Assembly (NCBI GenBank): GCA_947259165.1
Contig: CAMYKY010000016.1
Span: forward strand, 1 to 37,669
Source of the DNA: an uncultured Acidobacteriota bacterium
GTDB lineage: Bacteria > Acidobacteriota > Vicinamibacteria > Marinacidobacterales > SMYC01
Reading direction: 5' to 3'
Length of the DNA stretch: 37,669 nt
Shown: piece by piece, positions 5,405 to 25,040 of the stretch
Numbering within the stretch: the first letter of the stretch is position 1
Layout of the letters: each line of letters opens with the position of its first letter
Program-made: the position numbers and the translations under genes
The notes under the pieces: model-generated
What the model saw: the letters and a program-made list of their open reading frames with translations, nothing else
What the model was told of the DNA's origin: nothing
The model's database searches: none

Positions 5405-6610
5405 TCAGCTCCGCTTGATGACCTTCGCGAGTCGCTCGATACCCACGTTGATCCTGTCTTCGGTGTAGCCGGAGAAGTTGAGCCGTAGCGCGTTCGTTCC
5501 GCCGCCAGCCCCGTAATAGCAGGAGCCCGGGACGTACATCACCTTCTCGGCGAGAGCGCCGTCGAGTATCGCGTCCGTGTCCATTTCCTTTGGTAAGGCG
5601 ACCCAGAGGAAAATGCCCCCCTCGGGCCGGCTCCAGGAAACACCGGGGGGGAAGTGCTTCTTCATAGCGGCGAACATGGCATCACGCCGCTTGCGATAGG
5701 CCTCCACGATGCGACAGATGTGCGGGTCCAGCCAATCGCGACGCAGGAACTCGTGGACGATGCGTTGGGGCAGTACGCTCGTGTGGAGGTCTGCGATTTG
5801 CTTGGCGAACACGAGCTTCTCCATGAGGGCGCCGGGCGCCAGGATGACGCCCACGCGCAGACCCGGACTGAGCGTCTTGGAGAAGCTCGACATGTAGATG
5901 ACACTTCCGCGGGTGTCGAGCGCTTTGAGCGGGGGGAGTGGGTCGCCATCGAATCGGAGCTCGCCGTAAGCGTCATCCTCGACGATGGGCACACCGTAGC
6001 GCTCGGCGATCTCGAGCAACTGGTGGCGACGCTCGAGGCTGAGCGTTCGACCCGTAGGGTTTTGGAAAGTGGGCATGATGTAGATGAACTTGACGTCGTT
6101 GCCTTCGAGGATCTCCGGGAGTCGGTCGATCCGCATGCCGTGCTCGTCCAAGGGAACGCTCAAAAAACGGGCTTGATAGAAGCTGAACGTCTGGAGCGCG
6201 GTCAGAAACGTCGGCTCGCCGAGCACAACGGCGTCGCCCTTTTCCAAAAACAGCTTCCCGACGAGATCGATTCCCTGCATCGCGCCGGTGACGATCATCA
6301 CGTTGTCCACACTCACATCGAAGCCGCGTTTGCGGTAACGTGTAGCGACTTGCTCTCGAAGTGGGAGGAAGCCTTCCGAGGTACTGTATTGGAGCGTCAA
6401 AGGGCCGTCGGTGCGCAGCAGCTCATCGGTGACTTCACGAATCTTGTCGAGCGGGAAGAGATCCCACGCGGGAAGACCACCGCCGAAAGAGATGATCTCG
6501 GGATCGGCCAATACGCTCATGAGCTTCCGAGTCATCGACCCGTAGAGCCCACCGGCGCGCTCGGCGAGCTTGCTCTCCCAGTCGATGGCGCTCGGCGATT
6601 GTGTCGTCAT
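5405..6610 (-). CDS. PLP-dependent class I/II aminotransferase (aromatic/2-aminoadipate type)
   Basis: The product is 401 residues, the usual size for fold-type I aminotransferases of the LysN/Aro8-like branch. Visible signatures are FGGGLPAWDLFP near the N-terminus (residues 42-53), the substrate/PLP loop NPTG at 184-187, EDDAYGEL at 211-218 with the Asp that contacts the pyridine nitrogen, and the Schiff-base Lys245 in SSFSKTLSPG. There is no MocR-type DNA-binding domain. The ATG at 6610 overlaps the iorB stop (ATGA), which fixes the start. The family moves amino groups between 2-oxoglutarate and aromatic amino acids or 2-aminoadipate. With two indolepyruvate oxidoreductases adjacent, the most economical role is tryptophan (or Phe/Tyr) to the arylpyruvate. 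Specificity cannot be proven from the motifs. Confidence 0.9.
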   Translation of the reverse strand: MTTQSPSAIDWESKLAERAGGLYGSMTRKLMSVLADPEIISFGGGLPAWDLFPLDKIREVTDELLRTDGPLTLQYSTSEGFLPLREQVATRYRKRGFDVSVDNVMIVTGAMQGIDLVGKLFLEKGDAVVLGEPTFLTALQTFSFYQARFLSVPLDEHGMRIDRLPEILEGNDVKFIYIMPTFQNPTGRTLSLERRHQLLEIAERYGVPIVEDDAYGELRFDGDPLPPLKALDTRGSVIYMSSFSKTLSPGLRVGVILAPGALMEKLVFAKQIADLHTSVLPQRIVHEFLRRDWLDPHICRIVEAYRKRRDAMFAAMKKHFPPGVSWSRPEGGIFLWVALPKEMDTDAILDGALAEKVMYVPGSCYYGAGGGTNALRLNFSGYTEDRINVGIERLAKVIKRS

Positions 6611-7206
6611 CGACCTGCGCCCCTCGCCAAGGAAAGAAGGTTGTTCGGAAGAGACGCCGCCTTCGCCGTCTTCTCGATGCTTTTGACGACCGCGTCGTAG
6701 CTCAGCGGGAAGGTATCGACGCTCGAAAGCACCCCCAGCATGACGACGTTGGCGGTGGCGGCACCGCCCGCCTCCAACGCGACGGCCAGAGCATCGACTT
6801 CTTCGATGCTGCCGGCGCCGAGCCGCTCCAACTCCGTGCGGATGGTGGGCAGATCGAGGCTCGGCTGTCGTCCCATCTTTGTCTCGAGCGGTGCGTTGAT
6901 GTTCGTGTTGAGCACGACTTCTCCACCGGGGGCGAGATACATCGTGGCACGCCGCAGCGTTTCGATAGGCTCGAGGCCCAGGATGAGCGGGCACGTCTTT
7001 TTCGGGATCAGTGGGCCGCACACGTCGTAGCCGAGACGAATTTGGCTGAACACGGCGCCGCCGCGCTGCGCGACGCCATAAGTCTCGGCGACGCGAACCG
7101 AGATTCCTTCAAGAAGAGCGGCCTGAGCAATGACCCGGGACGCGAATAGGCTACCCTGGCCACCGACCCCGGCGATGATGAGATCGAACGGCTCGTGGGC
7201 GCTCAT
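6607..7206 (-). CDS. iorB: Indolepyruvate ferredoxin oxidoreductase, beta subunit (copy 1)
   Basis: The product is 199 residues, a typical IorB consisting of the 2-oxoacid:ferredoxin oxidoreductase gamma domain. The opening GVGGQGSLFASRVIAQAA and the AETYGVAQRGGAVFSQIR segment are family hallmarks; they contribute to the CoA/TPP site together with IorA. The frame is open much further upstream, but the ATG at 7206 overlaps the iorA stop codon (ATGA) and starts exactly at the conserved domain, so I take it as the start. With IorA it forms an enzyme that converts arylpyruvates plus CoA to arylacetyl-CoA, CO2 and reduced ferredoxin. Its stop in turn overlaps the aminotransferase start, tying the three genes together. 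Confidence 0.93.
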   Translation of the reverse strand: MSAHEPFDLIIAGVGGQGSLFASRVIAQAALLEGISVRVAETYGVAQRGGAVFSQIRLGYDVCGPLIPKKTCPLILGLEPIETLRRATMYLAPGGEVVLNTNINAPLETKMGRQPSLDLPTIRTELERLGAGSIEEVDALAVALEAGGAATANVVMLGVLSSVDTFPLSYDAVVKSIEKTAKAASLPNNLLSLARGAGR

Positions 7207-9083
7207 GTCGGCGGTGAATCTCGGCGGACAAAAGAGATAGCCTCGGGCGGGCAAATGAACTTGCAGGCCGCGCAGCCGGTGCACTGGAGGGCTTCCACTT
7301 CGATCTTGCCCAAGCCGTCCGCGGCAGGCACAAAAGCGGGGCATCCGAACTCGTCGATGCACGCGAGGCAACCGTCGCACAACGCCTCGTCGATGGTCGC
7401 GACGATGGCACGCCGGCCAATCTCGGAGGGCTCGAGTGCGCACGCCTGGCGAGAGACGACCATGGCCGGTCCATCGCTGCTCAAGGCTTCTTCGAGAATC
7501 CCGGGGAGCTTCTTCAGCTGAAACGATCCGACGACGCGAACGTAAGGAAGTCCGTAGGCTTTGCCCAGGTCTTCGATGGGAACGAGGGTGCGCGCATCGG
7601 AGTTTTGCCACGAGCCGGGATGTGGCTGCTGTCCCGTGGAACCGGTCACCGAGTTGTCCATTACCAAAACGGTGACGGGAAGCCTCTGATGGCTTATCTG
7701 AAGCAGCCCGGGCATGCCGGCGTGGTACATCGTCGAGTCGCCGATGACAGCGATGACCTTGCGGTGCGGGTTGAGCTCGGCGAGCGCAGCCGCCGTTCCC
7801 ATGCTCGCGCCCATCGACGTCATCGTCTGCAGGATGTTGAACGGTGGGAAAAAGCCGAGCGTATAGCAACCGATGTCTCCGACGACAATCGGGTCGTTGA
7901 TACCCAGGTTATCGAACGCTTGGGCGAGCGCGTAGTATGTCGTTCGGTGCGAGCAGCCGGAGCAAAAGGAAATCTGGCGATTGGGGATCGATGCCGGCTT
8001 CGCGGCTTCACCGGGAAGGCGCGGTGGCGTCCCCTCCACCAACGCATCGAGAGCGTCCACGACGTCGTCCGGCAAAGTTTCCCCGGTGCTTGGCAGCGCG
8101 CCCGATCGTCGACCGCGCACTTCGACGAGCTTTCCCATGGCGGCGGCTTCAAGAAGCAATCCCTCTTCGAGGTACGCAGCGACGTCTTCCACGACCAACA
8201 CCCGGTCCAGTGGCTCGAGGAACTTCCGTATGAGCGCGCGAGGGAGGGGGTTGACGCTCGACACTTTCAATAAAGCCACGCGGTTGTTGACGGCCAGCCG
8301 GTCCACCGCTTCTCGCGCGTAGTTGTACGCAAAGCCTGCGGCGGCGATACCGAGACGTTCGGTGCCGTTGCTCTCCCAGGTGTCGACTCCGAAGGCGTCG
8401 AGCATCCCCGCCGCCTGTCTCAGTTTCTTCTGTAGCCGTCCGTGAGGGGCCAGCGGTGGAAACGGACTCCACTGACGAGACGAATCGAAGTGCGGCTTCT
8501 TGTGAGGAGCTTCAATCGTTCCGAGCGTGAGCGCGCTCGTCATGTGAGCGAGCCGGGTGACCGAGCGGATCAAGACGGGAACTTTCAGACTTTCGGAGAT
8601 CTCGAACGCGCGTCGGGTGAGCTCGCGGGCCTCCTCGAGGGTTGATGGTTCGAGCGCGGGGATCTCCGCCATCTTCGCGTACAGGCGGTTGTCCTGCTCG
8701 TTGTTGGAGCTGATGCCTCCGGGATCGTCGACGGAGATGATCACGAGGCCCCCGGCAATGTCCACGAGGTTGAGCTGCATCAGAGAGTCGGCTGCGACAT
8801 TCAAGCCGACGTGTTTCGTGACGACGAGAGCTCTTGCTCCGGAGAAGGATGCACCCGTAGCGACATCGAAAGCGACTTTCTCGTTCACCGACCAGAAGGC
8901 ACTGAACCCGAGCACGGGCGCCGCCTCAATGAGTGTCTCCATGATCTCTGTCGATGGAGTCCCGGGATAACCCGTGGCGAGCTGGACGCCCGCCTCGATG
9001 GCGCCTCGCGCAAACGCCTCGTTCCCCAGAGCGAGGAGCGGCTCCTCGGGAGTGGGCGATAACAGAGTGGGGTTGAGTGTCAT
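7203..9083 (-). CDS. iorA: Indolepyruvate ferredoxin oxidoreductase, alpha subunit (copy 1)
   Basis: The product is 626 residues, normal for IorA. Domain order is visible: pyrimidine-binding domain with GYPGTPSTEI (residues 38-47); a middle transketolase-like domain; the TPP pyrophosphate domain with FCSGCSHRT, GDIGCYTLG, GDSTMYHAG and TGSTGQQP; and a C-terminal two-cluster ferredoxin domain with CDGCLAC...CP and CTGCAACKFICP, all cysteines present. The enzyme decarboxylates indolepyruvate and related arylpyruvates to the acyl-CoA, reducing ferredoxin. It is usually oxygen-sensitive, which suggests low-oxygen use. The ATG at 9083 has a GGAG-type ribosome site on the minus strand. The gene leads the minus-strand operon and faces the thiolase operon across a shared control region. 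A second copy lies at 10454. Confidence 0.95.
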   Translation of the reverse strand: MTLNPTLLSPTPEEPLLALGNEAFARGAIEAGVQLATGYPGTPSTEIMETLIEAAPVLGFSAFWSVNEKVAFDVATGASFSGARALVVTKHVGLNVAADSLMQLNLVDIAGGLVIISVDDPGGISSNNEQDNRLYAKMAEIPALEPSTLEEARELTRRAFEISESLKVPVLIRSVTRLAHMTSALTLGTIEAPHKKPHFDSSRQWSPFPPLAPHGRLQKKLRQAAGMLDAFGVDTWESNGTERLGIAAAGFAYNYAREAVDRLAVNNRVALLKVSSVNPLPRALIRKFLEPLDRVLVVEDVAAYLEEGLLLEAAAMGKLVEVRGRRSGALPSTGETLPDDVVDALDALVEGTPPRLPGEAAKPASIPNRQISFCSGCSHRTTYYALAQAFDNLGINDPIVVGDIGCYTLGFFPPFNILQTMTSMGASMGTAAALAELNPHRKVIAVIGDSTMYHAGMPGLLQISHQRLPVTVLVMDNSVTGSTGQQPHPGSWQNSDARTLVPIEDLGKAYGLPYVRVVGSFQLKKLPGILEEALSSDGPAMVVSRQACALEPSEIGRRAIVATIDEALCDGCLACIDEFGCPAFVPAADGLGKIEVEALQCTGCAACKFICPPEAISFVRRDSPPT

Positions 9084-9251
9084 GGTGACTCCAGCGCGAA
9101 AGCGCGCACCACGCGGGTCATTTGACGCAAAACCACCGCCTTGTTCGCTGGTAATAAGGGAACAAACGCCCTTGTCCAGCCTGCCCAGTGGTGATGCAAG
9201 ATCTTTTCCATTATTGGCGCGCGGTTTGCTTGTCAAAACGTGAGTCGATCT
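9084..9251. promoter_or_regulatory. Divergent control region between the two IOR operons
   Basis: This 168-base gap must hold the promoters of both divergent operons. It contains an inverted repeat TTGTTC (9141-9146) / GAACAA (9160-9165) with a 13-base spacer, overlapped by a second one, AAGGG (9156-9160) / CCCTT (9169-9173); either could be an operator. A GCGC-GAAA-GCGC hairpin (9094-9105) sits just upstream of the iorA ribosome site. I see no convincing -35/-10 pair; TTGTCC at 9172 with TGCAAG at 9195 is the best weak candidate toward the thiolase. No regulator gene is encoded in the window to pair with these sites. Confidence 0.4.
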
Positions 9252-10454
9252 ATGACGATGCCGTGCATTCCCTACGGTGGTTATTGGTCGACACCGTTTG
9301 CCCGCTGGCAAGGCTCGTTCGCGGATCTACACAGCATCGAGTTTGCGGCCCATGTGGCCAGGCTCGAGCTCAAAAAACGGGACATCGCGCCCGAGTCTTT
9401 CGACTATGGTGTCTTGGGGATCACGATCCCGCAGCGCTCGTCTTTCTACGGTCTTCCGTGGTTGATGGGCATGATCGGGGCCTCGCGGGTGCCCGGGCCA
9501 ACGATCTCTCAGGCGTGTGCCACTAGCGTGCGAAGCGTTGCATCCGCCGTCGATGAGATAGTGCGCGGTGCCTCGGAAACGGCCCTGGTCGTTACCGCGG
9601 ATCGCACTTCCAACGGGCCACACCTCTACTACCCCAAACCGTCGGGACCGGGAGGCACGGGCGACCACGAGAACTGGGTGCTCGACAACTTCTCGTGTGA
9701 TCCGTTTGCGAAGGTCTCAATGATCGAGACCGGCGAGAACGTCGCCCGCAAATGGGAGCTCGGCACCGAAGCGCAGCACGAAGTGGTGCTTCGCCGCCAT
9801 CAGCAGTATCACGACGCGCTCGCCGACGATGCCGCTTTCCTGAAGCGCTTCATGACGCTTCCTTTCGAAGTGCCGGACAAGCGGTACCGCAAGACGGTCG
9901 CGACCTTGGACGGGGACGAAGGCATCCATCCCACGACGTCCGAAGGATTAGCCGCGCTCCGTCCGGTCGTGGCCGGGGGCACGATCACCTTCGGAGGGCA
10001 AACGCACCCTGCGGACGGTAACGCCGCTCTCATCGTCACCTCCGAAGAGCGAGCGCGCGCGCTTTCGCGGGACGGCTCGATTGCCATCCGCATCCTCTCG
10101 TTCGGTCAGGCGCGTGCCGACAAGGCTTTCATGCCCGAGGCGCCGATCGCGGCGGCGAGTCAAGCCCTCGACGCCGCCGGCATTCGCATCGGGGCTGTGG
10201 ACGCGATCAAGTCCCACAATCCCTTCGCGGTGAACGACCTTGGGTTTGCGCGCGAGATGGGCGTCGACGTGATGACGATGAACAACTTCGGCTGTTCTTT
10301 GATCTGGGGTCACCCGCAAGGACCGACCGGGTTGCGTGGCATCATCGAGCTCATCGAAGAGCTCACGCTTCGAGGTGGAGGCGTGGGCCTGTTCCACGGT
10401 TGCGCCGCGGGGGACACGGCTATGGCCGTTATCTTGAAAGTGGAAAACGGCTAA
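9252..10454 (+). CDS. Thiolase-family acyl-CoA acetyltransferase (proposed aminobenzoylacetyl-CoA thiolase)
   Basis: The product is 400 residues, standard for thiolases. The nucleophilic Cys89 lies in SQACATSV, the same number as in the classic biosynthetic thiolase. His354 in WGHPQGPTG and Cys384 in FHGCAAGD complete the active site, and SHNPFAVND replaces the usual NEAFA loop, as in a divergent thiolase branch. I use the ATG at 9252; an in-frame GTG at 9240 gives only four more residues and neither has a strong ribosome site. The stop overlaps the next start (TAATG). As first gene of the plus-strand operon with a dehydrogenase and a mutase, it would do the last step: CoA-dependent cleavage of a 3-oxoacyl-CoA to acetyl-CoA and an aroyl-CoA. 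The substrate is inferred from context. Confidence 0.9.
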   Translation: MTMPCIPYGGYWSTPFARWQGSFADLHSIEFAAHVARLELKKRDIAPESFDYGVLGITIPQRSSFYGLPWLMGMIGASRVPGPTISQACATSVRSVASAVDEIVRGASETALVVTADRTSNGPHLYYPKPSGPGGTGDHENWVLDNFSCDPFAKVSMIETGENVARKWELGTEAQHEVVLRRHQQYHDALADDAAFLKRFMTLPFEVPDKRYRKTVATLDGDEGIHPTTSEGLAALRPVVAGGTITFGGQTHPADGNAALIVTSEERARALSRDGSIAIRILSFGQARADKAFMPEAPIAAASQALDAAGIRIGAVDAIKSHNPFAVNDLGFAREMGVDVMTMNNFGCSLIWGHPQGPTGLRGIIELIEELTLRGGGVGLFHGCAAGDTAMAVILKVENG

Positions 10455-12292
10455 TGAAGGCCGGCGACGAAGTTCTGCAGGGTCGAGCTGGTACGACCGC
10501 GTGCCTCCTGGGTAATCTCGCCATCGTCCGCGGAGCTCTCGAAGCGGGCGTGCAGTTTGTCTCCGGCTATCCCGGAACCCCCGCTTCCGAGATCGGAGAC
10601 ACCTTCGCCCGCATCGCCAGCGAGGCGGATGTTCTCTTCGAGTACTCGGTCAACGAGAAGATCGCCGTGGAGATAGCCTTCGCCGCCAGCCAGGCCGGCG
10701 CTCGGTCGCTTTGCAGCATGAAGCACGTCGGGTTGAGCTACGCAGGCGATCCAATCTCCACGATTCCGTATGTTGGCGTCGGAGGCGGGATGGTGATCGT
10801 TTCTGCCGGCGACCCTTCCGCCATCACCAGTCCCAACGAACAAGACCAACGCCACTACAGCAGCTTTCTCTTCTATCCGGTTTTCGATCCCGCGACGCCC
10901 GAAGACGCGAAGAACATGACGCGGTACGCGTTCGACTTTTCGGAGAGAACGCGTCTACCGGTTCTGCTGCGTCCAACGACACGGGTGTGTCACACGAGCG
11001 GCATGGTGCGTCTCGGCCAGCTTCCGCAGGCGAAAAACGCGCTCGGGTTCGAGAAGGACCCCAACGCTTACGTCCCCATTCCGGCCAATGTCCAAAGGAT
11101 GCGCCGAGAGCTATCCGCTCGCTGGGATCTTGCGGAGCAACTTCTTGGAGAATCGGATTTTTTTTCTCACACCGGTGACGGCAAGCACGGGATTGTCGCG
11201 GGGGGTGTCCCGTATGCCTACCTGGATCAGGTGATTCGCGAGCTGGGTCTCGAGAGTGATGTGTCCGTACTCAAGGTCGGAGCCTATCCGATACCGGAGT
11301 CGGTGCTCTCCGAGTTTCTCGCCTCGGTGGAATCGGTACTCGTCGTCGAAGAGCTCACGCCCTTCATCGAAGACACGGTGACACTCTCGGCGTATCGAAA
11401 CAGGGTACAGATTCCGATTCTCGGGAAACGTACCGGGCATTTTCCCGAGGCGTTCGAGTACTCGCCCGAGCTCGTCGAAGACGCCGTACGGAATTACCTG
11501 CAATTAGGCGCGCGCGCGAAGCGAACACTGGATGTTCCGGAGCTACCACCGCGCCCGCCGGTGCTGTGTGCCGGGTGCTCCCACCGAACGAGCTTCTACT
11601 TGACGCGAAAAGTGTTTGGCAAGAAGACCGTCTACTGCAACGACATCGGCTGCTACACCCTCGGCTACGGTGAGGTGTTGGATTCTTGCGACACCGTGCT
11701 GTGTATGGGCTCGAGCATCACTCAGGCATCAGGAATCGCCCGAATGACCGGCGAGCGCGCCGTCGCTTATATTGGTGACTCCACATTCTTCCATAGCGGC
11801 CTTCCAGCTCTCGTCAACGCCGTCCAGGCGGACGACGCGGTGACGGTCGTCATTCTCAATAATTACGTCACCGGGATGACCGGCTTCCAGCCTAGTCCAA
11901 CAACGACGCCTCACTTCAACATCGAAGACGCGGTCAAAGGCCTCGGCGTCCATACCGTGTTGTCCGCCAACCCTTTCGAGGAAGACCTTGCTCTCGACGT
12001 CTTGAAGCAAGCGAGAGGCGGCACCGGGGTCAACGTCGTCGTGTTCAACGCACCGTGTGTGGTGAACGAGACGAAGCTCGGGACCCGTATGGATCGCCCC
12101 GCCTACGAAGTCGATCAAGTGCTGTGTAACGAGTGCTCGTTGTGCGTTCGTCTTATCGGCTGCCCTGCGATCTTCATCGAAGACGGCCGCTACGTCATCG
12201 ACCAGGAGCTTTGCGACGGCTGTGACCTTTGTGCGAGCGTCTGCAACCGAGGCGCCATTCACGCGTTAGCCCCGGTGAGTCCAGTGAAGTGA
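10454..12292 (+). CDS. iorA: Indolepyruvate ferredoxin oxidoreductase, alpha subunit (copy 2)
   Basis: The product is 612 residues and parallels copy 1 in domain order: GYPGTPASEI (residues 38-47), CAGCSHRT, NDIGCYTLGYG, GDSTFFHSG and TGMTGFQP in the TPP domains, then a C-terminal pair of iron-sulfur motifs, CNECSLCVRLIGCP and CDGCDLCASVCNRG. All expected cluster cysteines are present. It differs clearly in sequence from copy 1, so this is an old paralogue or separate acquisition, not a recent duplication. The ATG overlaps the thiolase stop and its own stop overlaps the iorB start, so it is embedded in the pathway operon. The two copies may prefer different arylpyruvates (indole-, phenyl-, hydroxyphenylpyruvate). 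Expected role: indolepyruvate to indoleacetyl-CoA. Confidence 0.95.
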   Translation: MKAGDEVLQGRAGTTACLLGNLAIVRGALEAGVQFVSGYPGTPASEIGDTFARIASEADVLFEYSVNEKIAVEIAFAASQAGARSLCSMKHVGLSYAGDPISTIPYVGVGGGMVIVSAGDPSAITSPNEQDQRHYSSFLFYPVFDPATPEDAKNMTRYAFDFSERTRLPVLLRPTTRVCHTSGMVRLGQLPQAKNALGFEKDPNAYVPIPANVQRMRRELSARWDLAEQLLGESDFFSHTGDGKHGIVAGGVPYAYLDQVIRELGLESDVSVLKVGAYPIPESVLSEFLASVESVLVVEELTPFIEDTVTLSAYRNRVQIPILGKRTGHFPEAFEYSPELVEDAVRNYLQLGARAKRTLDVPELPPRPPVLCAGCSHRTSFYLTRKVFGKKTVYCNDIGCYTLGYGEVLDSCDTVLCMGSSITQASGIARMTGERAVAYIGDSTFFHSGLPALVNAVQADDAVTVVILNNYVTGMTGFQPSPTTTPHFNIEDAVKGLGVHTVLSANPFEEDLALDVLKQARGGTGVNVVVFNAPCVVNETKLGTRMDRPAYEVDQVLCNECSLCVRLIGCPAIFIEDGRYVIDQELCDGCDLCASVCNRGAIHALAPVSPVK

Positions 12293-12909
12293 TTGAAGAT
12301 GCGAGCAACAATGGCCGCCATCCGTGGCGCATTTTGACCGTCGGTACCGGAGGGCAAGGGGTTCTGACGGCCGCTCACTTGTTGAGTCGATTCTTCGTCG
12401 CACGCGGACATGAAGTCGTGAGCGGGCAGCTGCACGGCATGGCGCAGCGCGGGGGTTCGGTTCAGTCATCGGTCATGGTCGACTGCGGCATCAGCCCGGT
12501 CATACCGGAAGGCAAGGCGGACTTCGTCTTGGCTCTCGAGCCCATTGAGTGCGCTCGCGCTCTGCGCTTCGTCTCGTCGCGGACAAATGTGTTCATGAAC
12601 ACGGCGATGGTGACGCCATTCGTCGTAGCGCAAGACCAAGTCAGAAACCGCGATATGGGTCCTCCGAGTGTGCAGGAGCTCGAGCAGGCGATTGCGTCGG
12701 TGACGTCGCGTCTGCGTGTGACCGATGCGACCGCTCTCGCGGAGCAGGCGGGCTCGATCCGGACGCTCAACCTGGTGATGCTCGGCTCTTTATTCGGTGC
12801 GGACCTACTTCCTTATCGGCCCGCGGATTTCACCGACACGGTGGCTCTTGCCGAGGAGAACCGACGAGCCTTTATGAGCGGGGTGACGTGGAGTAGCGTC
12901 TTGTCATGA
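12289..12909 (+). CDS. iorB: Indolepyruvate ferredoxin oxidoreductase, beta subunit (copy 2)
   Basis: The product is 206 residues if started at the GTG at 12289, which overlaps the iorA stop (GTGA). An upstream ATG at 12229 in the same frame would lie inside iorA and add an Arg-rich non-conserved leader, so I reject it. The gamma-domain signatures TVGTGGQGVLTAAHLL and GQLHGMAQRGGSVQSS are clear. It pairs with the alpha subunit immediately upstream to form the second arylpyruvate oxidoreductase. Its stop overlaps the hyuA start by four bases, physically linking arylacetyl-CoA formation to the ring-opening enzyme. Confidence 0.92.
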   Translation: MIEDASNNGRHPWRILTVGTGGQGVLTAAHLLSRFFVARGHEVVSGQLHGMAQRGGSVQSSVMVDCGISPVIPEGKADFVLALEPIECARALRFVSSRTNVFMNTAMVTPFVVAQDQVRNRDMGPPSVQELEQAIASVTSRLRVTDATALAEQAGSIRTLNLVMLGSLFGADLLPYRPADFTDTVALAEENRRAFMSGVTWSSVLS

Positions 12910-15035
12910 GCCTCAAGATCGGGATCGACGTGGGTGGAACCTTCACCGACTTTCTCGTCGCGGACGGAGACTCCGCCACAACGTTCAAAGTCCTGTCCAC
13001 CCCGTCCGACCCGTCTATCGGGCTCATCGACGGCCTGACCGAGATCGCGGGCAGCCGCGATGTGAGCCTCTCGGAGCTCGCGCGCTCGATCGACACGATC
13101 GTCCATGGCACTACGGTGACCACCAACGCGGTTCTCACGCACACCGGAGCCAAAACCGGGCTGGTGACGACCCAAGGGGTGCGCGACGCCCTAGAGATGC
13201 GGCGCGGGATTCGAGAGGAGCAATACAACAATCGCTACACCAACGTGCCGCCGCTGGTTCCACGCTACTTGCGCGCTCCGGTGGCGGGTCGGCTCGACTA
13301 TAAAGGTGACGAGCTCGAAGCCTTGGAGCTCGATGACGTGCGGGAGGCCGTCCGTCTCTTCAAGCTCGAAGGCGTCGAATCGGTCGCGGTGTGTTTCATG
13401 AACGCCTTCGCCAATCCGCAGCACGAACGCGAGGCGGCGAAGCTCATCGAAAGTGAGCTTCCCGGTGCGTACGTCACCATCTCCACCGACCTTCTGCCGT
13501 CGATACGATTCTACGAGCGCGTGAGCACAACCGTGCTCAACTCGTATGTGGGGCCCAAGCTGAGCTCCTATCTGGACAGTCTCGTGTTACGCCTGCAAGA
13601 GATTGGCTTCGGCGGCGTTCTTCTCATCATGCAGTCGAATGGCGGCGTGATGGCGCCCGAGGTCGCTCGGGACAAAGCTTCGCTCACGTTGCTGTCGGGG
13701 CCGGCGGCGGGTCCGCGGGCCGGGCTCACGTACTCACGCGCGCACGGACACGATAGCTGCATCACCGTCGACATGGGAGGGACGAGCTTCGATGCCGCGC
13801 TCGTTCGAGACGGTGCCCCTATCGTCGTCAACGAAGGCGAGATCAACCGCTACCGGATCGCGCTACCCATGCTCGGGATCGTCACCATCGGGGCCGGCGG
13901 AGGCAGCGTTGGGTGGATCGATGAAGGCGGGCTTTTGCGTATGGGCCCTGAGAGCGCGGGCGCCGACCCGGGGCCCGCTTGCTACGGGAAGGGAGGTCGG
14001 CGCCCGACGTGTACCGACGCAGATCTCGTTCTCGGCTACCTCGATCCTGACTTCTTCGCCGGCGGCAAGATTCGCCTGGATGTAGAAGCGAGTCGGGGCG
14101 CCATCGAGGAGCACACTGCGAAACCGTTGAACCTGCCGATCGAAGAGGCAGCGGCGGGGATGTATCGCATCATCAACAACAACATGGCGCAAGGCGTCCG
14201 CGAGATCACCGTGAAGCGCGGTTACGACCCGAGGGAGTTCCCCATGGTCGTCGCCGGCGGCGCTGGGCCAATCCATGCCTGCTTGATTGCCGACGAGCTC
14301 GACATCCCCATGTTCTTGGTCCCGCGGGAGTCTTCCATCTTCTGCGCCGCGGGCATGCTCATGAGCGATTTGCAGCATGATTTCGTCCGTTCCTTCGTCG
14401 GAGATCTGGACAAGCTGGATTGGGACGCACTCGGCCGCGTGCTCACGGATATGGTGGAAGAAGGGACACGCCTTCTCGCTGCGGAGAAGATCCCGGAAGA
14501 CCGCTCGCAGTTCCAGGTAAGCCTCGACTGTCGCTACGTGAAGCAATACCACGAGGTTTCCTTCCCGGTTTCCGTGGATGCTGTTTGCCAGGCGCAGCTC
14601 GGCGAGATTGCCACCCTTTTTCACCGAGAGCACAACCGTATGTTCGGCTACTCTCTCGAACAGGAAGGCACACCCATCGAGCTCATCAACATCCGGCTCC
14701 GCGCGGTCGGGACCACCGAAAAACCGGCGCGCGCCGCGGAAGAGCCTTCCGGAGCCGACCCCGATGAGGCGCTCAAGGGTGAGCGTCGCCTGTTCGTTCC
14801 CGAAGACAACGGCTTCGCGAATGCCCCGGTTTACGACGGAAACCGTACCCGGCACGGGCACCGCATCGTCGGGCCGGCACTCATCGAGCAGGTGAACACG
14901 ACGGTCTTTCTTTCTCGCTCGTACGATTGCGTTTGCGACAAATACGGTTCCTTCGCCGTTTACCAAAAGGGCAAAGAGAACCGAGGTGCAGTTACACCAG
15001 GCGATTCAGCCGCAACCGGAGGCACCGCGGCATGA
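12906..15035 (+). CDS. hyuA: Hydantoinase/oxoprolinase family protein, A subunit (proposed ATP-dependent lactam-opening enzyme)
   Basis: The product is 709 residues, typical for HyuA. ATP-binding signatures of the ASKHA-like fold are visible: DVGGTFTD (residues 8-15), HGTTVTTNAVL, DMGGTSFDAAL and the Gly-rich GAGGGSVGW. With HyuB the family hydrolyses hydantoins or 5-oxoproline at ATP cost, or carboxylates ketones such as acetone and acetophenone. No partner for amino acid racemisation or carbamoyl removal is present, so ordinary hydantoin use is unlikely. In the indoleacetate pathway a hydantoinase-like pair opens the five-membered lactam of oxindole-acetate; with a molybdenum hydroxylase and IORs in the same operon, that is my preferred role. 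ATGA overlaps join it to iorB upstream and hyuB downstream. Confidence 0.9.
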   Translation: MSLKIGIDVGGTFTDFLVADGDSATTFKVLSTPSDPSIGLIDGLTEIAGSRDVSLSELARSIDTIVHGTTVTTNAVLTHTGAKTGLVTTQGVRDALEMRRGIREEQYNNRYTNVPPLVPRYLRAPVAGRLDYKGDELEALELDDVREAVRLFKLEGVESVAVCFMNAFANPQHEREAAKLIESELPGAYVTISTDLLPSIRFYERVSTTVLNSYVGPKLSSYLDSLVLRLQEIGFGGVLLIMQSNGGVMAPEVARDKASLTLLSGPAAGPRAGLTYSRAHGHDSCITVDMGGTSFDAALVRDGAPIVVNEGEINRYRIALPMLGIVTIGAGGGSVGWIDEGGLLRMGPESAGADPGPACYGKGGRRPTCTDADLVLGYLDPDFFAGGKIRLDVEASRGAIEEHTAKPLNLPIEEAAAGMYRIINNNMAQGVREITVKRGYDPREFPMVVAGGAGPIHACLIADELDIPMFLVPRESSIFCAAGMLMSDLQHDFVRSFVGDLDKLDWDALGRVLTDMVEEGTRLLAAEKIPEDRSQFQVSLDCRYVKQYHEVSFPVSVDAVCQAQLGEIATLFHREHNRMFGYSLEQEGTPIELINIRLRAVGTTEKPARAAEEPSGADPDEALKGERRLFVPEDNGFANAPVYDGNRTRHGHRIVGPALIEQVNTTVFLSRSYDCVCDKYGSFAVYQKGKENRGAVTPGDSAATGGTAA

Positions 15036-17850: not shown

Positions 17851-17984
17851 AGAAGCAAACGCCAAGGCGCAAAGGCGCAAAGGCGCAAAGTGGGCTGGCG
17901 ACGAATCGTCAATTTGGCGACGAAATGGGAACAAGACCTTGCTTTTTCTTCTTTGCGCCTTTGCGCCTTTGCGCCTTCGCGTTG
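17847..17984. repeat. GGCGCAAA inverted-repeat element, copy 1
   Basis: A 27-base arm made of three GGCGCAAA-like units (17864-17890) is matched perfectly in inverse orientation at 17951-17977, around a 60-base centre; near-matching bases extend both arms outward. A second copy is at 21332-21460, and the centres are clearly alike (both contain GAATCGTCA and GGCGACG). It begins at the dehydrogenase stop and fills the gap before the B12-binding gene. It has no coding capacity and looks like a REP/MITE-type element. As RNA it would form a long hairpin inside the operon transcript. Confidence 0.85.
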
Positions 17985-18005
17985 AGTCTTTTTACTTTTT
18001 GAACC

Positions 18006-18401
18006 ATGACGGAAAAAAGAATTCGCGTGTTGATCGCCAAGCCCGGTCTTGATGGCCACGACGTGGGGGCCAAAGTCGTGGCGCGCGCACTCATGGACGC
18101 GGGTTTCGAAGTGATCTACACAGGCCTGAAACAGTCTGCCGAAGAGATTGCCCGGGCGGCCGGCCAGGAGGATGTCGACGTCATCGGGCTCTCGGTTTTG
18201 TCGGGCTCACACTTGCCTCTGTGCCGAACGCTGAAAGGCAAGCTCGAAGAGCAAGAGCTCGGCGACAAGCTCTGGATCGTGGGCGGCAACATTCCTCGCA
18301 GAGACCACGACGAGCTGAAAAAACTCGGCGTCGCCGCCGTCTTTGCTACCGGAACCACGACGGAGACGATCGTCTCGTTTGTCCGTGAGAACGTCGTATG
18401 A
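18006..18401 (+). CDS. Cobalamin-binding small subunit of a B12-dependent acyl-CoA mutase
   Basis: The product is 131 residues, just the B12-binding domain. The base-off cobalamin motif DxHxxG is Asp16-His18-Gly21 in GLDGHDVGAK, followed by the family's SVLSGSH and the VGGNIP loop. In fused methylmalonyl-CoA mutases this domain is the C-terminus; here it is a separate gene, as in archaeal, isobutyryl- and 2-hydroxyisobutyryl-CoA mutases. The stop overlaps the large-subunit start (ATGA), so the two are made together. The upstream gap is filled by an inverted-repeat element, and there is no obvious ribosome site before the ATG at 18006. Confidence 0.94.
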   Translation: MTEKRIRVLIAKPGLDGHDVGAKVVARALMDAGFEVIYTGLKQSAEEIARAAGQEDVDVIGLSVLSGSHLPLCRTLKGKLEEQELGDKLWIVGGNIPRRDHDELKKLGVAAVFATGTTTETIVSFVRENVV

Positions 18402-19981: not shown

Positions 19982-19988
19982 GCGAGCT

Positions 19989-20846: not shown

Positions 20847-21336
20847 GAAAGAGATCCACTTCCGTGTGAACGGGAATCTCACGAGCGTCGAGGTACCCGT
20901 CACGATGAACGCCCTCGCCATGATCCGGGACCGTCTGAAGTTGACAGGAACGAAGCGCGGCTGCGAGGAAGGTGAGTGCGGCTCGTGCACGATTCTCGTC
21001 GACGGGGTTTCGGTGAATGCCTGCCTGATGTTCGCGGTGGATTGCGACGGCCGCGACCTGACCACGATCGAGGGCATCCGCACTGCGGAGGGACTGAGCC
21101 CGCTCCAGAAGCTGTTCGTGGAGGAGTGGGCGGTCCAGTGCGGCTTCTGCACACCTGGCATGGTGATGCAGGGGACGTACTTGCTGAGTCAGAACCGGGA
21201 AATGAGTGTCGAGGACATCAAACGTGGCATCGAAGGAAACCTCTGCAGGTGCACCGGCTACAAGAAAGTGATCGCCGCCATCGCAGGAGCTCTCCACGCA
21301 ACGCCAAGGCGGGGAGAGGAGAAAGAGGATTCTTGA
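20836..21336 (+). CDS. Molybdenum hydroxylase, [2Fe-2S] small subunit
   Basis: The product is 166 residues, typical for the XdhC/CoxS-type subunit. The N-terminal plant-type cluster uses Cys43, Cys48, Cys51 (CEEGECGSC) and Cys63. The C-terminal four-helix cluster uses Cys102 and Cys105 (CGFCTPGM) and Cys137 and Cys139 (CRCTGY). All eight ligands are present. The tail after ALHA is a short charged stretch (TPRRGEEKEDS) encoded right up to the edge of the second inverted-repeat element, so the native C-terminus may have been altered by insertion of that element. The subunit passes electrons from the molybdenum site to the FAD subunit. Confidence 0.95.
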   Translation: MSLEKEIHFRVNGNLTSVEVPVTMNALAMIRDRLKLTGTKRGCEEGECGSCTILVDGVSVNACLMFAVDCDGRDLTTIEGIRTAEGLSPLQKLFVEEWAVQCGFCTPGMVMQGTYLLSQNREMSVEDIKRGIEGNLCRCTGYKKVIAAIAGALHATPRRGEEKEDS

Positions 21337-21460
21337 AAAACAAACGTAAAGGCGCAAGGGCGCACAGAGGACTGGCAGCGAATCGTCAGTTAGGCGACGC
21401 AATCGGAGCGAAATCTTGGGTTTTCTTTGCGCCTCTGCGTCTTTGCGCCTTTGCGTTGAA
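21332..21460. repeat. GGCGCAAA inverted-repeat element, copy 2
   Basis: This is a diverged copy of the element at 17847-17984. It begins with the same TCTTGA-A-rich-CAAACG left edge, has an imperfect left arm (21341-21366), a centre with GAATCGTCAGTTAGGCGACG, and a right arm of CTTTGCGCC/CTTTGCGTTG units (21425-21458). It separates the small- and large-subunit genes of the molybdenum enzyme, which in most such operons nearly abut. As with copy 1, the upstream gene's stop codon lies exactly in the left edge. Confidence 0.8.
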
Positions 21461-21487
21461 AAAACGCAGAAAGCGACGGTAGCAACG

Positions 21488-23794
21488 ATGACGGTTATCG
21501 AAAAGCAGACTCTGATCGGCAAAGCGATCCCCAAGCTGGACGGGCCCAAGAAGGTCACTGGTGAGGCGCGCTACGTTCAGGACATCGAGCTTCCCCGCAT
21601 GCTGTTCGCGAAGATACTTCGCTCGAGCCGAGTGCACGCGCGTATCGTGCGGATCGACACGAGCGCGGCGAGGAAGCTTCCGGGGGTTCACGCCGTTATC
21701 ACCGCTGCCGACACACCGGGCGTGCCCCTCGGGCACGGCAAGGACAATCCTCCGCTCAAGAGCGACAAGGTCCGCTCGCTCAGAGACGAAGTAGCGGCGG
21801 TAGCCGCCGAAAGCGAAGACATTGCGGAACGAGCGCTCTCTCTGATTGAAGTCGACTACGAAGACTTGCCGGCGGTGTTCGACCCGAATGCGGCGCTTCT
21901 CGACGACGCGCCCGTCATCCACGAGAGCCATCCCGACAACATTCCCTTCACTTACGAGTACAGTCAAGGCGACGTCGGTCAAGGGGAGCGAGACTCCGAC
22001 GTCGTCATCGAGGACAAGTTCACACTCCACTTCGTCACCCACTGCTGTATGGGCGTGAGCGGCGCTGTCGCTCAGTTCGATGCGGACGACAACTTGACCG
22101 TCTACTCCCAGACGCAGGTGCCGTTTCTCTACAAGAAGGACATCGCTCCCATCATCGACGTTCCGCCGGAGAAGATCCGCGTCATCCAGCCGTCGATCGG
22201 AGGCGGGTTCGGGAGCAAACTCGATATTTATCCGTTCGAGCCAATCTGCATTCTGTTGGCGCGGGCGACGCGGCGGCCGGTCAAGCTGACGTTCACGCGG
22301 GAAGAAGAGTTCCTCGCGTCGCCGACGCGCCAGCCGGTGGAGCTCACGCTGAGAAGTGGTGTGAAGAAAGACGGAACCCTGACGTTTCGCGACGTCGCTA
22401 CGGTGCACGACAACGGCGCCTACACCTCTTGGGGAGCGACCACTCCCTTCGTCATCATGCAGACGATCTCGTCGCTCTATCGAGTGCCGCACTGTAGTTA
22501 TCGAACGACCGTGGTGTACACCAACAACCCCTATAGCGGATCGTTTCGCGGCTTCGGAAATTTGCAGGCCACGTTCGCGGTCGAATCCCACATGGACAAG
22601 TTGGCGGAAGCCGTGGCGATGGATCCTCTCGCGTTCCGACTTCAAAACGCACAGCAGCCAGGTGAGACCACGCCGCAAGGAATGGTGTTCCGAAGCTGTG
22701 GCCTTGCCGAGTGCCTCACCACCGCGGCCGAGCGGAGCGGGTTTGTCGAGAAGCACGCCCGTTATTCTCGATACGGGCGTGGGCAAAATGGACAGGGCGG
22801 ACCGGTCAAACGTGGCGTGGGGATCGCCTCGCTTCTTCACGTGGGTGGGGGCGCCAAGATTTACCGCTCCGATGGATGCGGCACGATGCTGAAGATCGAC
22901 GACTACGGGCACGTCACCGTGTTGACGGGAGCATCCGAGATCGGTCAAGGCTCGGAGACGGTCATCGCACAATTCGTGGCCGAAGAGCTCGGACTACCGA
23001 TCTCGTCGATAAGCGTCGTGAACGATGATTCCGAGCTTACGCCTTGGGACGTCGGGGTGCACGCGAGTCGGACGACGTTCATCGCGGGGAACTCAGCTCA
23101 ACGCGCCGCACGCAAAGCGCGCGAGAAACTCCTGGCTGCTGCGGCGACTAAGCTCGAACTATCGGCGGAGGAGCTCGATCTGCGCGAGGGGAACGTCACC
23201 CGTGCCGATACCGGAGAGGCTCTTCTCGAGCTTCCCCGGCTCATCCGCTCCCTGCACTTTGCGAAAAAAAGCGAGGTGGTCATGACCGCGGAGTACTACG
23301 AGCCGCCGAGCGTTCCCCAGGACAAAGAGTTCAAGGGCGACGTGTCCGCGAGCTACGCGTTCGGTACCCAGGTCGTGGAGCTCGAAGTGGACACCGAGAC
23401 CGGTGTGATCCGCATCGTCAAAGTGACGGCGGCTCACGACGTCGGCAGAGTCATCAATAGCCTGGGCATCCAGGGACAAATCGAGGGTGGTGTCGCCATG
23501 GGCATGGGCTACGCCATCTCCGAGCACCTTCTCGTAGACGAGGGGGTCATCCAGAATCCGTGCTTTCGAGACTACAAGCTCGTCACTGCGCCGGAGATGC
23601 CCGAGATCGACATGCACTTCATCGAAACGCTGGACCCGGAGGGTCCGTCGGGCGCGAAGGGCGTTGGCGAGGCCCCGGCCATTTGCATCGCTGCGGCCGT
23701 CGTGAACGCGGTCTACAACGCGACCGGGACGCGGTTTGACTCACTGCCGCTCACACCGGAGCGGGTGCTGCGGAGACTGAAAAACCACGCCTGA
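21488..23794 (+). CDS. Molybdenum hydroxylase, molybdopterin-binding large subunit (proposed indole-ring hydroxylase)
   Basis: The product is 768 residues in the xanthine oxidase large-subunit family. Visible are the Gly-rich molybdopterin loop GGGFGSK (238-244), SFRGFG with Arg354 matching xanthine oxidase Arg880, and the catalytic base Glu728 in GVGEAP matching Glu1261. The residue matching purine-binding Glu802 is Leu245, so xanthine is an unlikely substrate. The loop NPYSGSFRG lacks the Cys of CO dehydrogenase (AYRCSFR), so it is not a CO dehydrogenase. It would hydroxylate a carbon next to a ring nitrogen with water as oxygen source; in context, C2 of the indole ring of indoleacetate or its CoA ester. 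The ATG at 21488 is chosen because upstream in-frame sequence is repeat DNA. Confidence 0.93.
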
Positions 23795-23804
23795 AAAACC
23801 ACTG

Positions 23805-24998
23805 ATGAAGCGTCGCACTGTGGTCTCGATGGAGCAAGCGCTGTCGTTGAGCTACGCCACGTTGCGTTTCGTGCAGCTCGGCTGGCGTGTTATTCGGCTG
23901 GAGTCGACGCCTGTGGGCACGAGCCTCCCCGGCGATCCCAACCGCTACATCGGCGACATCGTGGCCGACGACGACCGGCGCTCCTACTTCATTGCACCCA
24001 ACGTCGGGAAAGAAGCCATCGCTCTCAACCTCAAGGAAGAAAAAGGCCAGGAGCTTCTGCAGCGGATCGTCCGGGAGCTCGACGTCGAGATTTTTTGTTG
24101 CAATACGCTTCCTCATCGTTACCAGAGCCTCGGCATCGACTACGAGACGCTGCGCTCGGTGAGAGAGGACATCATCTGGGCCGGAATCTCGGCGATGGGG
24201 CCGGACTACCCGAATACACCGGGCTACGATCCTGCGCTGCAGGCCATGGTGGGCTACATGGAGCTCACCGGAGACAAAGACGGCCCGCCCACGCTCTCAG
24301 GTGTCCCGCTCATCGATTTGAAGGCGGGTGACGAAGTGTATGCCAATGTCCTGCTGGCGCTCGCAGAGAAGGCGGAGACCGGCCTAGGCAAGGCGATTCA
24401 CGTCTCCATGTTGCAAGCCGCGGCTTCGTGGCTCATCACCACGCTGCCGCTCATCGATTTCGACTGCGACCCAACCGAGATCACTCGAGCCGGAAACGAG
24501 CACCGCAAGTTCATCCCCGCCAACGCCTATCGCACCAAGGACGGATTCATCTACATAGCCATCGGAAACGACTTGCAGTGGCAACGGCTGAGCGCAGCGT
24601 CGAAATTTCAGACGCTTCGTTCCTCCCAGCGCGAGACCAACGCCGGTCGCATACGAGAAGCCGGATCGATCCACCGCGAAATGGCCGAGGCGACGTCCCG
24701 CCACTCGACCGATGAGCTCGTGCGAGAATTTCGAGAAGCGAAGATCCCGCACGCTCCCATCCACACCGTGCCCCAGGTTCGGGAAATGGAAGCCGTTCAG
24801 TCGAAGTTGACGTCGACGCAAGCTCCCGACGGACGGACGATCCATCTAACCCCCGCGGCGGTGGACCTTTCAGGCACCGCATCCGAGTATTCCTTCGCTC
24901 CTCGCTACAGCGAGCACACGATGTCCGTTTTGAAAGAAGCCGGCGTCCCTGCTTCCGAGATGGGCGGACTCGAGACCCAGGGCATCATCCCCCGGTGA
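23805..24998 (+). CDS. Family III (CaiB/BaiF) CoA-transferase (IaaL-like role proposed)
   Basis: The product is 397 residues, normal for family III. The catalytic aspartate is Asp171 in LIDLKAG, close to Asp169 of formyl-CoA transferase, and it forms the aspartyl-CoA anhydride intermediate. [10 protein letters not shown] and [16 protein letters not shown] are the usual Rossmann-like N-terminal elements. The N-terminus is slightly shorter than many members, which begin with a LxGxRVLDL strand. Ten bases separate it from the molybdenum subunit. The family moves CoA between carboxylic acids such as succinate, phenylsuccinate and benzylsuccinate; in the auxin pathway IaaL acts on phenylsuccinate-type acids. 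Here it would equilibrate the two CoA regioisomers of aminophenylsuccinate so that the mutase can act. Confidence 0.92.
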
Positions 24999-25027
24999 GC
25001 ATTCGCTCGCCTGGTTCATAAACGAAT

Positions 25028-25032
25028 GGAGG
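25028..25032 (+). promoter_or_regulatory. Ribosome binding site that favours a TTG start for the radical SAM gene
   Basis: GGAGG at 25028-25032 lies eight bases before TTG 25041 but inside the first codons if the ATG at 25026 is used. The ATG itself has no ribosome site upstream (the preceding bases are TTCATAAACGA). I therefore prefer the TTG; the two differ by five residues. Confidence 0.55.
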
Positions 25033-25040
25033 ATAAGAGA

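What the first reader, a model, noticed from the sequence alone, without database searches (positions are those of the whole stretch)
5405..24998. Apparent CoA-dependent tryptophan/indoleacetate (auxin) degradation cluster fed by indolepyruvate oxidoreductase
Seen: aminotransferase, two IORs, HyuAB, Glu-less acyl-CoA dehydrogenase, two-part B12 mutase, three-subunit molybdenum hydroxylase, family III CoA-transferase and thiolase, in two divergent operons with overlapping genes. Known: anaerobic indoleacetate degradation in Aromatoleum/Azoarcus (the iaa genes, including IaaB ligase, IaaL CoA-transferase and IaaF benzylmalonyl-CoA dehydrogenase) uses a molybdenum hydroxylase, hydantoinase, CoA-transferase, B12 mutase, decarboxylating dehydrogenase and thiolase to reach 2-aminobenzoyl-CoA. 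Inference: this cluster is a tryptophan-entry version in which IOR makes indoleacetyl-CoA directly and no indoleacetate-CoA ligase is needed. I know of no description of this gene arrangement.
Basis: partly seen in the sequence, partly recalled or inferred. Interest (0 to 1): 0.9.

Follow-up and report, generated by a model that had tools for sequence, protein, structure and literature searches.

The report
Tryptophan-fed version of auxin-breakdown operon
This bacterial gene cluster matches the known oxygen-free auxin-breakdown operon gene for gene, except that a keto-acid oxidoreductase sits where the operon normally has its auxin-activating ligase, so the cell likely feeds tryptophan, not auxin, into the pathway; related clusters with such an oxidoreductase occur in several phyla, which suggests an unrecognised route for tryptophan breakdown.

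Summary
Window 5405-24998 holds an aminotransferase and a second IOR alpha chain on the minus strand, divergent from thiolase-IorA-IorB-HyuA-HyuB-acyl-CoA dehydrogenase-mutase (small, large)-Mo hydroxylase (3 subunits)-CoA-transferase. The ten non-IOR plus-strand genes are collinear with the iaa locus of Aromatoleum toluclasticum (52-72% identity). The dehydrogenase carries the published IaaF signature (GGG for YEG), and the mutase falls in an iaa clade apart from other mutases (100*). In that stretch one slot differs: Aromatoleum has a CoA ligase (IaaB) between thiolase and HyuA, the window has IorA-IorB. No close IaaB relative was found in the MAG (84% complete). The MAG encodes BcrABCD and BoxBC for the expected product. 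Of 68 other IaaF-type loci, 22 have an OFOR near by (four architectures; 6 of them beside IaaB), against 0 of 14 control loci; 26 show neither. In this sample IaaB-type ligases form one derived clade. Best reading: tryptophan -> indolepyruvate -> indoleacetyl-CoA -> iaa pathway -> 2-aminobenzoyl-CoA. Every substrate is inferred. The 2016 paper that surveyed iaa clusters could not be read, so priority of the IOR variant is unverified. Interest 0.62; new variant of a known kind.

The parts
5405..6610 (-). class I/II aminotransferase (predicted to make indolepyruvate from tryptophan)
   Evidence: PF00155; nearest solved: 1wst and KAT-II-type enzymes; ATG at 6610, the longer ORF to 7021 is not family-like in its first part
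7203..9083 (-). IOR2: second indolepyruvate oxidoreductase-type alpha chain, no beta gene beside it
   Evidence: TIGR03336 578 bits, below cut-off 650.9; TPP (GDS...DN) and two Fe-S motifs read, motif knowledge recalled
9252..10454 (+). thiolase, IaaA-like
   Evidence: PF00108/PF02803; 66% to the A. toluclasticum iaa thiolase
10454..12292 (+). IorA: indolepyruvate oxidoreductase alpha chain in the slot of ligase IaaB
   Evidence: TIGR03336 653.3 bits, cut-off 650.9; 64-67% to the IorA of the Phycisphaerae iaa cluster L043
12289..12909 (+). IorB: beta chain
   Evidence: PF01558; TIGR03334 132.5 bits, below its cut-off 205.8; 4-base overlap with HyuA
12906..15035 (+). HyuA, lactam hydrolase subunit
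   Evidence: PF01968, PF05378; 65% to L025
15032..16717 (+). HyuB, lactam hydrolase subunit
   Evidence: PF02538; 72% to L025
16717..17850 (+). IaaF-type decarboxylating acyl-CoA dehydrogenase, GGG motif
   Evidence: IaaF-type rows separate at 100/100*
18006..18401 (+). B12-binding small subunit of the mutase
   Evidence: PF02310, TIGR00640 over cut-off; 61% to L025
18398..19981 (+). large subunit of the mutase (benzylmalonyl-CoA mutase type)
   Evidence: PF01642; iaa clade 100*; CGYHIRESG stretch; 72% to L025
19989..20846 (+). molybdenum hydroxylase, FAD subunit
   Evidence: PF00941, PF03450; 52% to L025
20836..21336 (+). molybdenum hydroxylase, 2x[2Fe-2S] subunit
   Evidence: PF01799, PF00111; 58% to L025
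21488..23794 (+). molybdenum hydroxylase, Mo subunit
   Evidence: PF02738, PF20256; 64% to L025; nearest solved 4-hydroxybenzoyl-CoA reductase 1rm6
23805..24998 (+). family III CoA-transferase, IaaL-like
   Evidence: PF02515; 67% to the A. toluclasticum iaa gene, next-best-scoring match in that genome 27%

Best explanation
The cluster is an iaa-type operon in which IorA-IorB occupies the place of the indoleacetate-CoA ligase, and it likely carries tryptophan to 2-aminobenzoyl-CoA plus acetyl-CoA. Predicted steps, none tested: the aminotransferase turns tryptophan into indolepyruvate; IorAB (perhaps also IOR2 with the same IorB) oxidatively decarboxylates it to indoleacetyl-CoA and reduces ferredoxin; the molybdenum hydroxylase oxidises indole C-2 to the oxindole lactam; HyuAB hydrolyses the lactam with ATP to (2-aminophenyl)succinyl-CoA; the CoA-transferase moves CoA to the other carboxylate; the B12 mutase rearranges it to (2-aminobenzyl)malonyl-CoA; the GGG dehydrogenase oxidises and decarboxylates it to 2-aminocinnamoyl-CoA; a hydratase and a dehydrogenase encoded elsewhere, then the thiolase, release 2-aminobenzoyl-CoA and acetyl-CoA. 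The ring would then go to BcrABCD without oxygen (or BoxBC with oxygen), probably after loss of the amino group. Shown from sequence: gene families, gene order, the different occupant of the ligase slot, tree placement, presence of bcr and box genes. Inferred: every substrate and the direction of flow.
For: Ten genes collinear with the iaa locus of A. toluclasticum L025: THL 66, HyuA 65, HyuB 72, IaaF 70, MutS 61, MutL 72, MoM 52, MoS 58, MoL 64, CT3 67%; there an AMP-binding ligase lies between thiolase and HyuA, here IorA-IorB. GGG motif in the 120 best-listed homologues, 120 of 120 (104 by pattern, 16 by eye). In one search, 62 of 67 loci at about 50% identity or more have GGG (3 read by eye), 5 of 67 could not be read, and 14 of 14 loci at 41% or less have GEG or YEG. 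Published IaaF: GGG, decarboxylating benzylmalonyl-CoA dehydrogenase (PMC8360864). Mutase: 21 iaa rows and 18 mutases of related genomes (labelled methylmalonyl-CoA mutase by me) separate at 100*. No close IaaB relative in the MAG: 17 matches, the best-scoring 29% identical, short pieces up to 38%, against 54-90% for the other ligases of that slot. OFORs recur: of 68 loci with an IaaF-type gene (45% identity or more), 22 have an OFOR in the held flanks (6 together with IaaB); 0 of 14 loci of GEG/YEG dehydrogenases do, several of which are short. In L043, L048, L055, L062, L080, G019 and G157, as in the window, IorB lies directly before HyuA; four of the seven share the window's 4-base overlap (window). 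In the class, 3 of 193 genomes have IaaF at E 1e-105 or better; of 119 searched for IOR alpha at E 1e-60, 17 have it and only these three have two copies; at most 10 candidates per genome were scored. BcrB, C, D over curated cut-offs, BcrA 571 against 578, BoxB and BoxC over. [quoted passage not shown]
Against: No substrate tested; PMC13290082 (passages) states that no clear motif predicted indolepyruvate oxidation among its OFORs. IorB scores below its equivalog cut-offs, IOR2 below the alpha cut-off, and IOR2 has no beta gene. No hydratase, hydroxyacyl-CoA dehydrogenase or ETF seen in the cluster, and none was searched for in the genome. The MAG is 84% complete, so a ligase could be in the missing part. 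26 of 68 IaaF-type loci show neither IaaB nor an OFOR in the held flanks; 11 of these 26 have at least 2 kb before HyuA, so the entry gene is not always next door. L065 and L077, both among the 26, carry a PaaK-type ligase. The family III CoA-transferase could in principle activate free indoleacetate.
Confidence: 0.8

Rival explanations
1. Auxin reading: the cluster degrades imported indoleacetate like Aromatoleum, with the CoA-transferase (from succinyl-CoA) or an unlinked ligase making indoleacetyl-CoA, while the IORs serve general aromatic amino acid oxidation and merely sit near by.
For: IaaL is reported to do intermolecular CoA transfer with succinate (PMC8360864); G000 has several AMP-binding ligases (17 matches); 6 of 68 loci have both IaaB and a single-chain IOR.
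Against: IorA-IorB are inside the operon with 4-base overlaps in the ligase slot, and IorB-HyuA adjacency recurs in seven other loci; no close IaaB relative; no IaaM-type binding protein (Peripla_BP_6, as beside the L025 locus) among the window ORFs scanned.
Confidence: 0.12
2. Same chemistry on a different aryl 2-oxo acid: the IORs make another arylacetyl-CoA (for example from a substituted indole) and the pathway ends in a substituted benzoyl-CoA.
For: OFOR specificity could not be read from sequence (PMC13290082); IaaF accepts several bulky malonyl-CoAs weakly (PMC8360864); two different IOR alpha chains suggest more than one substrate.
Against: A Mo hydroxylase plus ATP-dependent lactam hydrolase makes sense for a fused N-heterocycle, which among the common amino-acid-derived 2-oxo acids means indolepyruvate (inference); similarity of the later enzymes to the indoleacetate pathway.
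Confidence: 0.06
3. Not an aromatic pathway: a chance assembly of hydantoinase, methylmalonyl-CoA mutase and acyl-CoA dehydrogenase genes of propionate or amide metabolism.
For: Family names alone (methylmalonyl-CoA mutase, caprolactamase, acyl-CoA dehydrogenase) would allow it.
Against: Collinearity with the iaa operon, the GGG signature and the trees; the MAG has other mutase genes of the methylmalonyl-CoA/isobutyryl-CoA kind.
Confidence: 0.02

Closest known systems
iaa operon (anaerobic indoleacetate degradation) of Aromatoleum
   Same: Thiolase, HyuAB, GGG dehydrogenase, two-part mutase, Mo hydroxylase, family III CoA-transferase in the same order
   Different: No IaaB ligase; IorA-IorB in its place; divergent aminotransferase and second IOR alpha; no IaaM-type binding protein among the window ORFs scanned (L025 has one)
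Indolepyruvate:ferredoxin oxidoreductase of peptide- and amino-acid-oxidising anaerobes
   Same: IorA/IorB with an aminotransferase near by; predicted product indoleacetyl-CoA
   Different: There the thioester is thought to yield ATP and the free acid leaves the cell (PMC3942289, search listing; PMC13290082, passages); here it would be kept and the ring opened
iad loci (aerobic auxin degradation, Variovorax, Achromobacter)
   Same: Also contain IOR-like genes iadA/iadB (PMC9613470, passages)
   Different: Aerobic, through isatin to anthranilic acid; described in that paper as highly divergent from the iaa genes and pathway
IorA-GltD fusion iaa clusters (G019, G157, L055, L062, L080, L060)
   Same: OFOR-bearing iaa clusters; in 5 of the 6 IorB lies directly before HyuA
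   Different: IorA is fused to a Fer4_20 + Pyr_redox_2 (GltD-like) part, 1122-1249 aa (L060 cut at 1058), suggesting NAD(P)H coupling; the window's IorA is unfused

Membership tests
iaa-type indoleacetate pathway | IaaF-type acyl-CoA dehydrogenase with GGG in place of YEG | tested here: met
   RFTLFGGGTSEI; IaaF-type rows separate at 100/100*; definition from PMC8360864
iaa-type indoleacetate pathway | Two-part B12 mutase of the IaaGH group, distinct from methylmalonyl-CoA mutase | tested here: met
   100*; shared stretch
iaa-type indoleacetate pathway | Conserved operon with HyuAB, Mo hydroxylase, CoA-transferase, thiolase | tested here: met
iaa-type indoleacetate pathway | Indoleacetate-CoA ligase IaaB | tested here: not met
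   slot holds IorA-IorB; best-scoring ligase in the MAG 29%; MAG 84% complete
iaa-type indoleacetate pathway | Activity on phenylsuccinyl-/benzylmalonyl-CoA | not testable with these tools
   needs enzyme assay
Indolepyruvate oxidoreductase (IOR) | Alpha chain over TIGR03336 cut-off | tested here: met
   IorA 653.3 vs 650.9; IOR2, 578, does not meet it
Indolepyruvate oxidoreductase (IOR) | Beta chain over TIGR03334 cut-off | tested here: not met
   132.5 vs 205.8; its best NCBIfam families are all IOR beta models, none over cut-off
Indolepyruvate oxidoreductase (IOR) | Oxidation of indolepyruvate | not testable with these tools
   no clear motif predicted it (PMC13290082, passages)
Downstream benzoyl-CoA route in the same genome | BcrABCD | tested here: met
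   TIGR02263 510, TIGR02260 725, TIGR02261 367 over cut-offs; BcrA 571, just below 578
Downstream benzoyl-CoA route in the same genome | BamB-type reductase (AFOR family) as alternative | tested here: inconclusive
   one AFOR_N match at a contig end, named aldehyde ferredoxin oxidoreductase at 140 bits, cut-off 868
Downstream benzoyl-CoA route in the same genome | 2-aminobenzoyl-CoA monooxygenase/reductase | not tested
   not searched for

The most novel reading that the evidence does not exclude
Tryptophan, not auxin, is the original substrate of this pathway: OFOR-fed iaa clusters are the widespread older form (the window's bacterium, Planctomycetota, Chloroflexota, Bacteroidota, an archaeon), assembled with at least four different OFOR architectures including an NAD(P)H-linked IorA-GltD fusion, and the textbook auxin operon of Aromatoleum is a late, ligase-swapped derivative that arose in proteobacteria.
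Probability: 0.45. Interest if true: 0.78.

Novelty: new variant of a known kind. Interest (0 to 1): 0.62.

Why it matters
If true, it gives many uncultured bacteria, and perhaps an archaeal lineage, an oxygen-free way to break tryptophan's indole ring while keeping the thioester and reduced ferredoxin from the first step, instead of spending ATP on a ligase or excreting indoleacetate. It makes the direction of evolution between amino-acid and auxin catabolism testable, and warns that iaa genes in metagenomes should not be read as auxin degradation by default.

Tried and rejected
Propionate/methylmalonyl-CoA reading rejected by trees. Reading the longer aminotransferase ORF (538 aa; best NCBIfam hit PdxR/MocR, below cut-off) as a MocR regulator rejected: no GntR domain found, and the family match starts after the internal ATG at 6610. 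A mutase position (Lys in the window where methylmalonyl-CoA mutase has Arg; position recalled) was dropped as a marker because iaa mutases carry Lys, Arg or once Asn there. The first ligase/IOR tally missed single-chain IORs, three-subunit OFORs and PaaK-type ligases and scored one 24% match in L069 as IorA; replaced. One of the two three-subunit calls, L054, rests on weak matches (26% and 31%, 104 and 88 bits). The IorA tree (quick method, several long branches) groups the IorA of window, L043, L055, L062, L080, G019 and G157 with the 14 sampled homologues (95*), apart from L060, the Chloroflexota pair L066/L068, IOR2 and the IorA of other genomes of the class; used only with caution. Five contig lengths shared between the IaaF and IorA homologue lists beside the window's own were noted but are weak. 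(passages) gave nothing on a role of IOR genes in iad or iaa loci. The genome-contig scan kept the best 80 of 584 confirmed places; Ferroglobus and Desulfatiglans iaa loci, named in PMC8360864, were not among them, so the root of the IaaF tree is under-sampled. Paper searches listed no paper that, by title, abstract start or the passages opened, describes an IOR-fed iaa cluster; the library holds open-licence papers only. Schuhle et al. 2016 and Ebenau-Jehle et al. 2012 are not held.
Full report
What is there. The window is contig 16 of a 5.02 Mb MAG (172 contigs, completeness 83.9%). The nearest homologues with an organism name, for both IaaF and IorA, are labelled Acidobacteriota, so the host is probably an acidobacterium (inference). 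ORFs and domains give two divergent units. Minus strand: IOR2 alpha (7203-9083), then an aminotransferase (5405-6610). Plus strand: thiolase, IorA, IorB, HyuA, HyuB, acyl-CoA dehydrogenase, small and large mutase subunits, three Mo-hydroxylase subunits, family III CoA-transferase (9252-24998). Four neighbouring pairs overlap by four bases.

It is an iaa cluster. A scan of named genomes with an alignment of the dehydrogenase returned the best 80 of 584 confirmed places, among them two Aromatoleum species. Ten window genes match the A. toluclasticum locus L025 in the same order at 52-72% identity. The dehydrogenase has GGG where ordinary enzymes have YEG, the mark of benzylmalonyl-CoA dehydrogenase IaaF in PMC8360864 (parts 1, 3 and 4 of 6 and find passages read). 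All 120 of the 120 best-listed homologues have it. Among the loci, 62 of 67 sequences at about 50% identity or more have GGG (59 by pattern, three by eye), five could not be read, and 14 of 14 at 41% or less have GEG or YEG. In the careful tree the IaaF-type rows are one side of a 100/100 branch. The mutase falls with 20 other iaa mutases, apart from 18 mutases of related genomes that I labelled methylmalonyl-CoA mutase (100*, quick tree). One-way best matches: the CoA-transferase finds the iaa locus of A. toluclasticum at 67%, next-best-scoring 27%; the A. toluclasticum thiolase finds the window at 66%, next 28%. The other eight genes were not tested for reciprocity.

The one change in this stretch. 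In L025 an AMP-binding ligase (IaaB position) lies between thiolase and HyuA; in the window IorA and IorB fill that slot. The MAG has no close IaaB relative: 17 matches, the best-scoring 29% identical, shorter pieces up to 38%, against 54-90% for the other ligases of that slot. The IorA of the window has no close relative in A. toluclasticum (best 36%, on another contig), but 67% identity to the one in the genome of the Phycisphaerae iaa cluster L043.

The swap recurs. Of 68 loci with an IaaF-type gene (45% identity or more; 66 from named-genome records plus G019 and G157 of the window's class), 20 have an IaaB-type ligase alone, 6 have it with a single-chain IOR downstream, 16 have an OFOR without IaaB (4 single-chain, 3 IorA+IorB, 1 with IorB only, 5 IorA-GltD fusion + IorB, 1 fusion alone, 2 three-subunit OFOR), and 26 show neither within the held flanks; 0 of 14 loci of GEG/YEG dehydrogenases show any. 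Against the reading: 11 of the 26 have at least 2 kb before HyuA and still show no entry gene there, and L065 and L077 of the 26 carry a PaaK-type ligase. Two of the four single-chain loci (L034, L045) are cut before the ligase slot. In G157, L055, L062, L080 and L060 Pfam shows IorA fused to Fer4_20 and Pyr_redox_2 domains, a GltD-like part; G019 has the same by similarity (94% to G157 in that part). In seven loci and the window IorB lies directly before HyuA (window). On the IaaF tree, which holds 13 of the 26 ligase loci, the ligase rows are one clade (100/100) whose sister L039 has a single-chain IOR; the window sits in the neighbouring clade with IorAB-bearing Phycisphaerae (99/92), and the two join at 100/99. 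In this sample the ligase form is therefore nested among OFOR forms; Ferroglobus and Desulfatiglans were not sampled, so which form is older is an inference.

Rarity in the host's class. IaaF at E 1e-105 or better occurs in 3 of 193 genomes: the window's and two of one other genus. Of 119 genomes searched for IOR alpha at E 1e-60, 17 have one, and the only three with two copies are the same three. At most ten candidates per genome were scored. G019 and G157 are close relatives, so these are two independent cases.

Fate of the product. The same MAG encodes BcrC, BcrB, BcrA and BcrD side by side on contig 131 (three over curated cut-offs, BcrA 571 against 578) and BoxC-BoxB on contig 99, both over cut-offs. 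An AFOR-family match is not a clear BamB. Review PMC4539516 (passages) records anaerobic conversion of anthranilate through 2-aminobenzoyl-CoA to benzoyl-CoA in Azoarcus evansii. The hydratase and hydroxyacyl-CoA dehydrogenase are not in the window cluster; in L061 and L084 a fused 3HCDH-ECH protein sits in the iaa cluster, which fits the scheme. Nothing here identifies the electron acceptor of IaaF, which is unknown in Aromatoleum too (PMC8360864).

Mechanism. Tryptophan -> indolepyruvate (aminotransferase) -> indoleacetyl-CoA (IorAB, reduced ferredoxin) -> oxindole lactam (Mo hydroxylase) -> (2-aminophenyl)succinyl-CoA (HyuAB, ATP) -> regioisomer (CoA-transferase) -> (2-aminobenzyl)malonyl-CoA (mutase) -> 2-aminocinnamoyl-CoA (IaaF) -> 2-aminobenzoyl-CoA + acetyl-CoA (thiolase). 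The IOR step has support from another two-gene OFOR (PMC13290082, passages), and the same source says that no clear motif predicted indolepyruvate use. All substrates here are inferred.

Novelty. The pathway core is known. No description of the IOR entry in the ligase slot, its recurrence or the GltD-fused form turned up in ten searches of the held library, but the 2016 survey paper could not be read. IOR-like genes in aerobic iad loci are known. Hence: new variant of a known kind.

Noticed in passing
window 27130-37096, minus strand: Two AprAB-like pairs (FAD_binding_2/Succ_DH_flav_C flavoproteins at 27545-29581 and 35120-37096, each followed by an ORF with two ferredoxin-type cysteine motifs or one) flank an oligopeptide ABC transporter. 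The flavoproteins are 71% and 49% identical to ones near the iaa clusters of G019/G157 and have no match at E 1e-15 in the other 80 loci; function unknown.
   Followed up: partly
G000 contigs 131 and 99 (L117, L118): The MAG carries both the ATP-dependent benzoyl-CoA reductase genes bcrCBAD and the aerobic boxC-boxB pair.
   Followed up: yes
L055, L060, L062, L080, L124 (G157), G019: IorA fused to a Fer4_20 + Pyr_redox_2 (GltD-like) module, 1122-1249 aa (L060 cut at 1058), in iaa clusters: a possible NAD(P)H-linked indolepyruvate oxidoreductase.
   Followed up: partly
L146, L147 (G019, G157): A second IorA, over the TIGR03336 cut-off, lies about 17-22 kb from the iaa IorA, beside a 444-aa ORF whose N-terminus looks PaaK-like by eye.
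   Followed up: partly
window 25026-26864: B12-binding radical SAM protein directly after the CoA-transferase, without a match in the other loci.
   Followed up: no
window 3373-5070: FAD/NAD-binding protein with a Tat-like N-terminus whose C-terminal tail looks unlike the rest, perhaps a frame change (by eye).
   Followed up: no
L072, L079, L091: Rokubacteria loci with a GGG IaaF-type gene, a second acyl-CoA dehydrogenase (38-46%) and only distant HyuAB (29-37%): perhaps a related pathway for another substrate.
   Followed up: no
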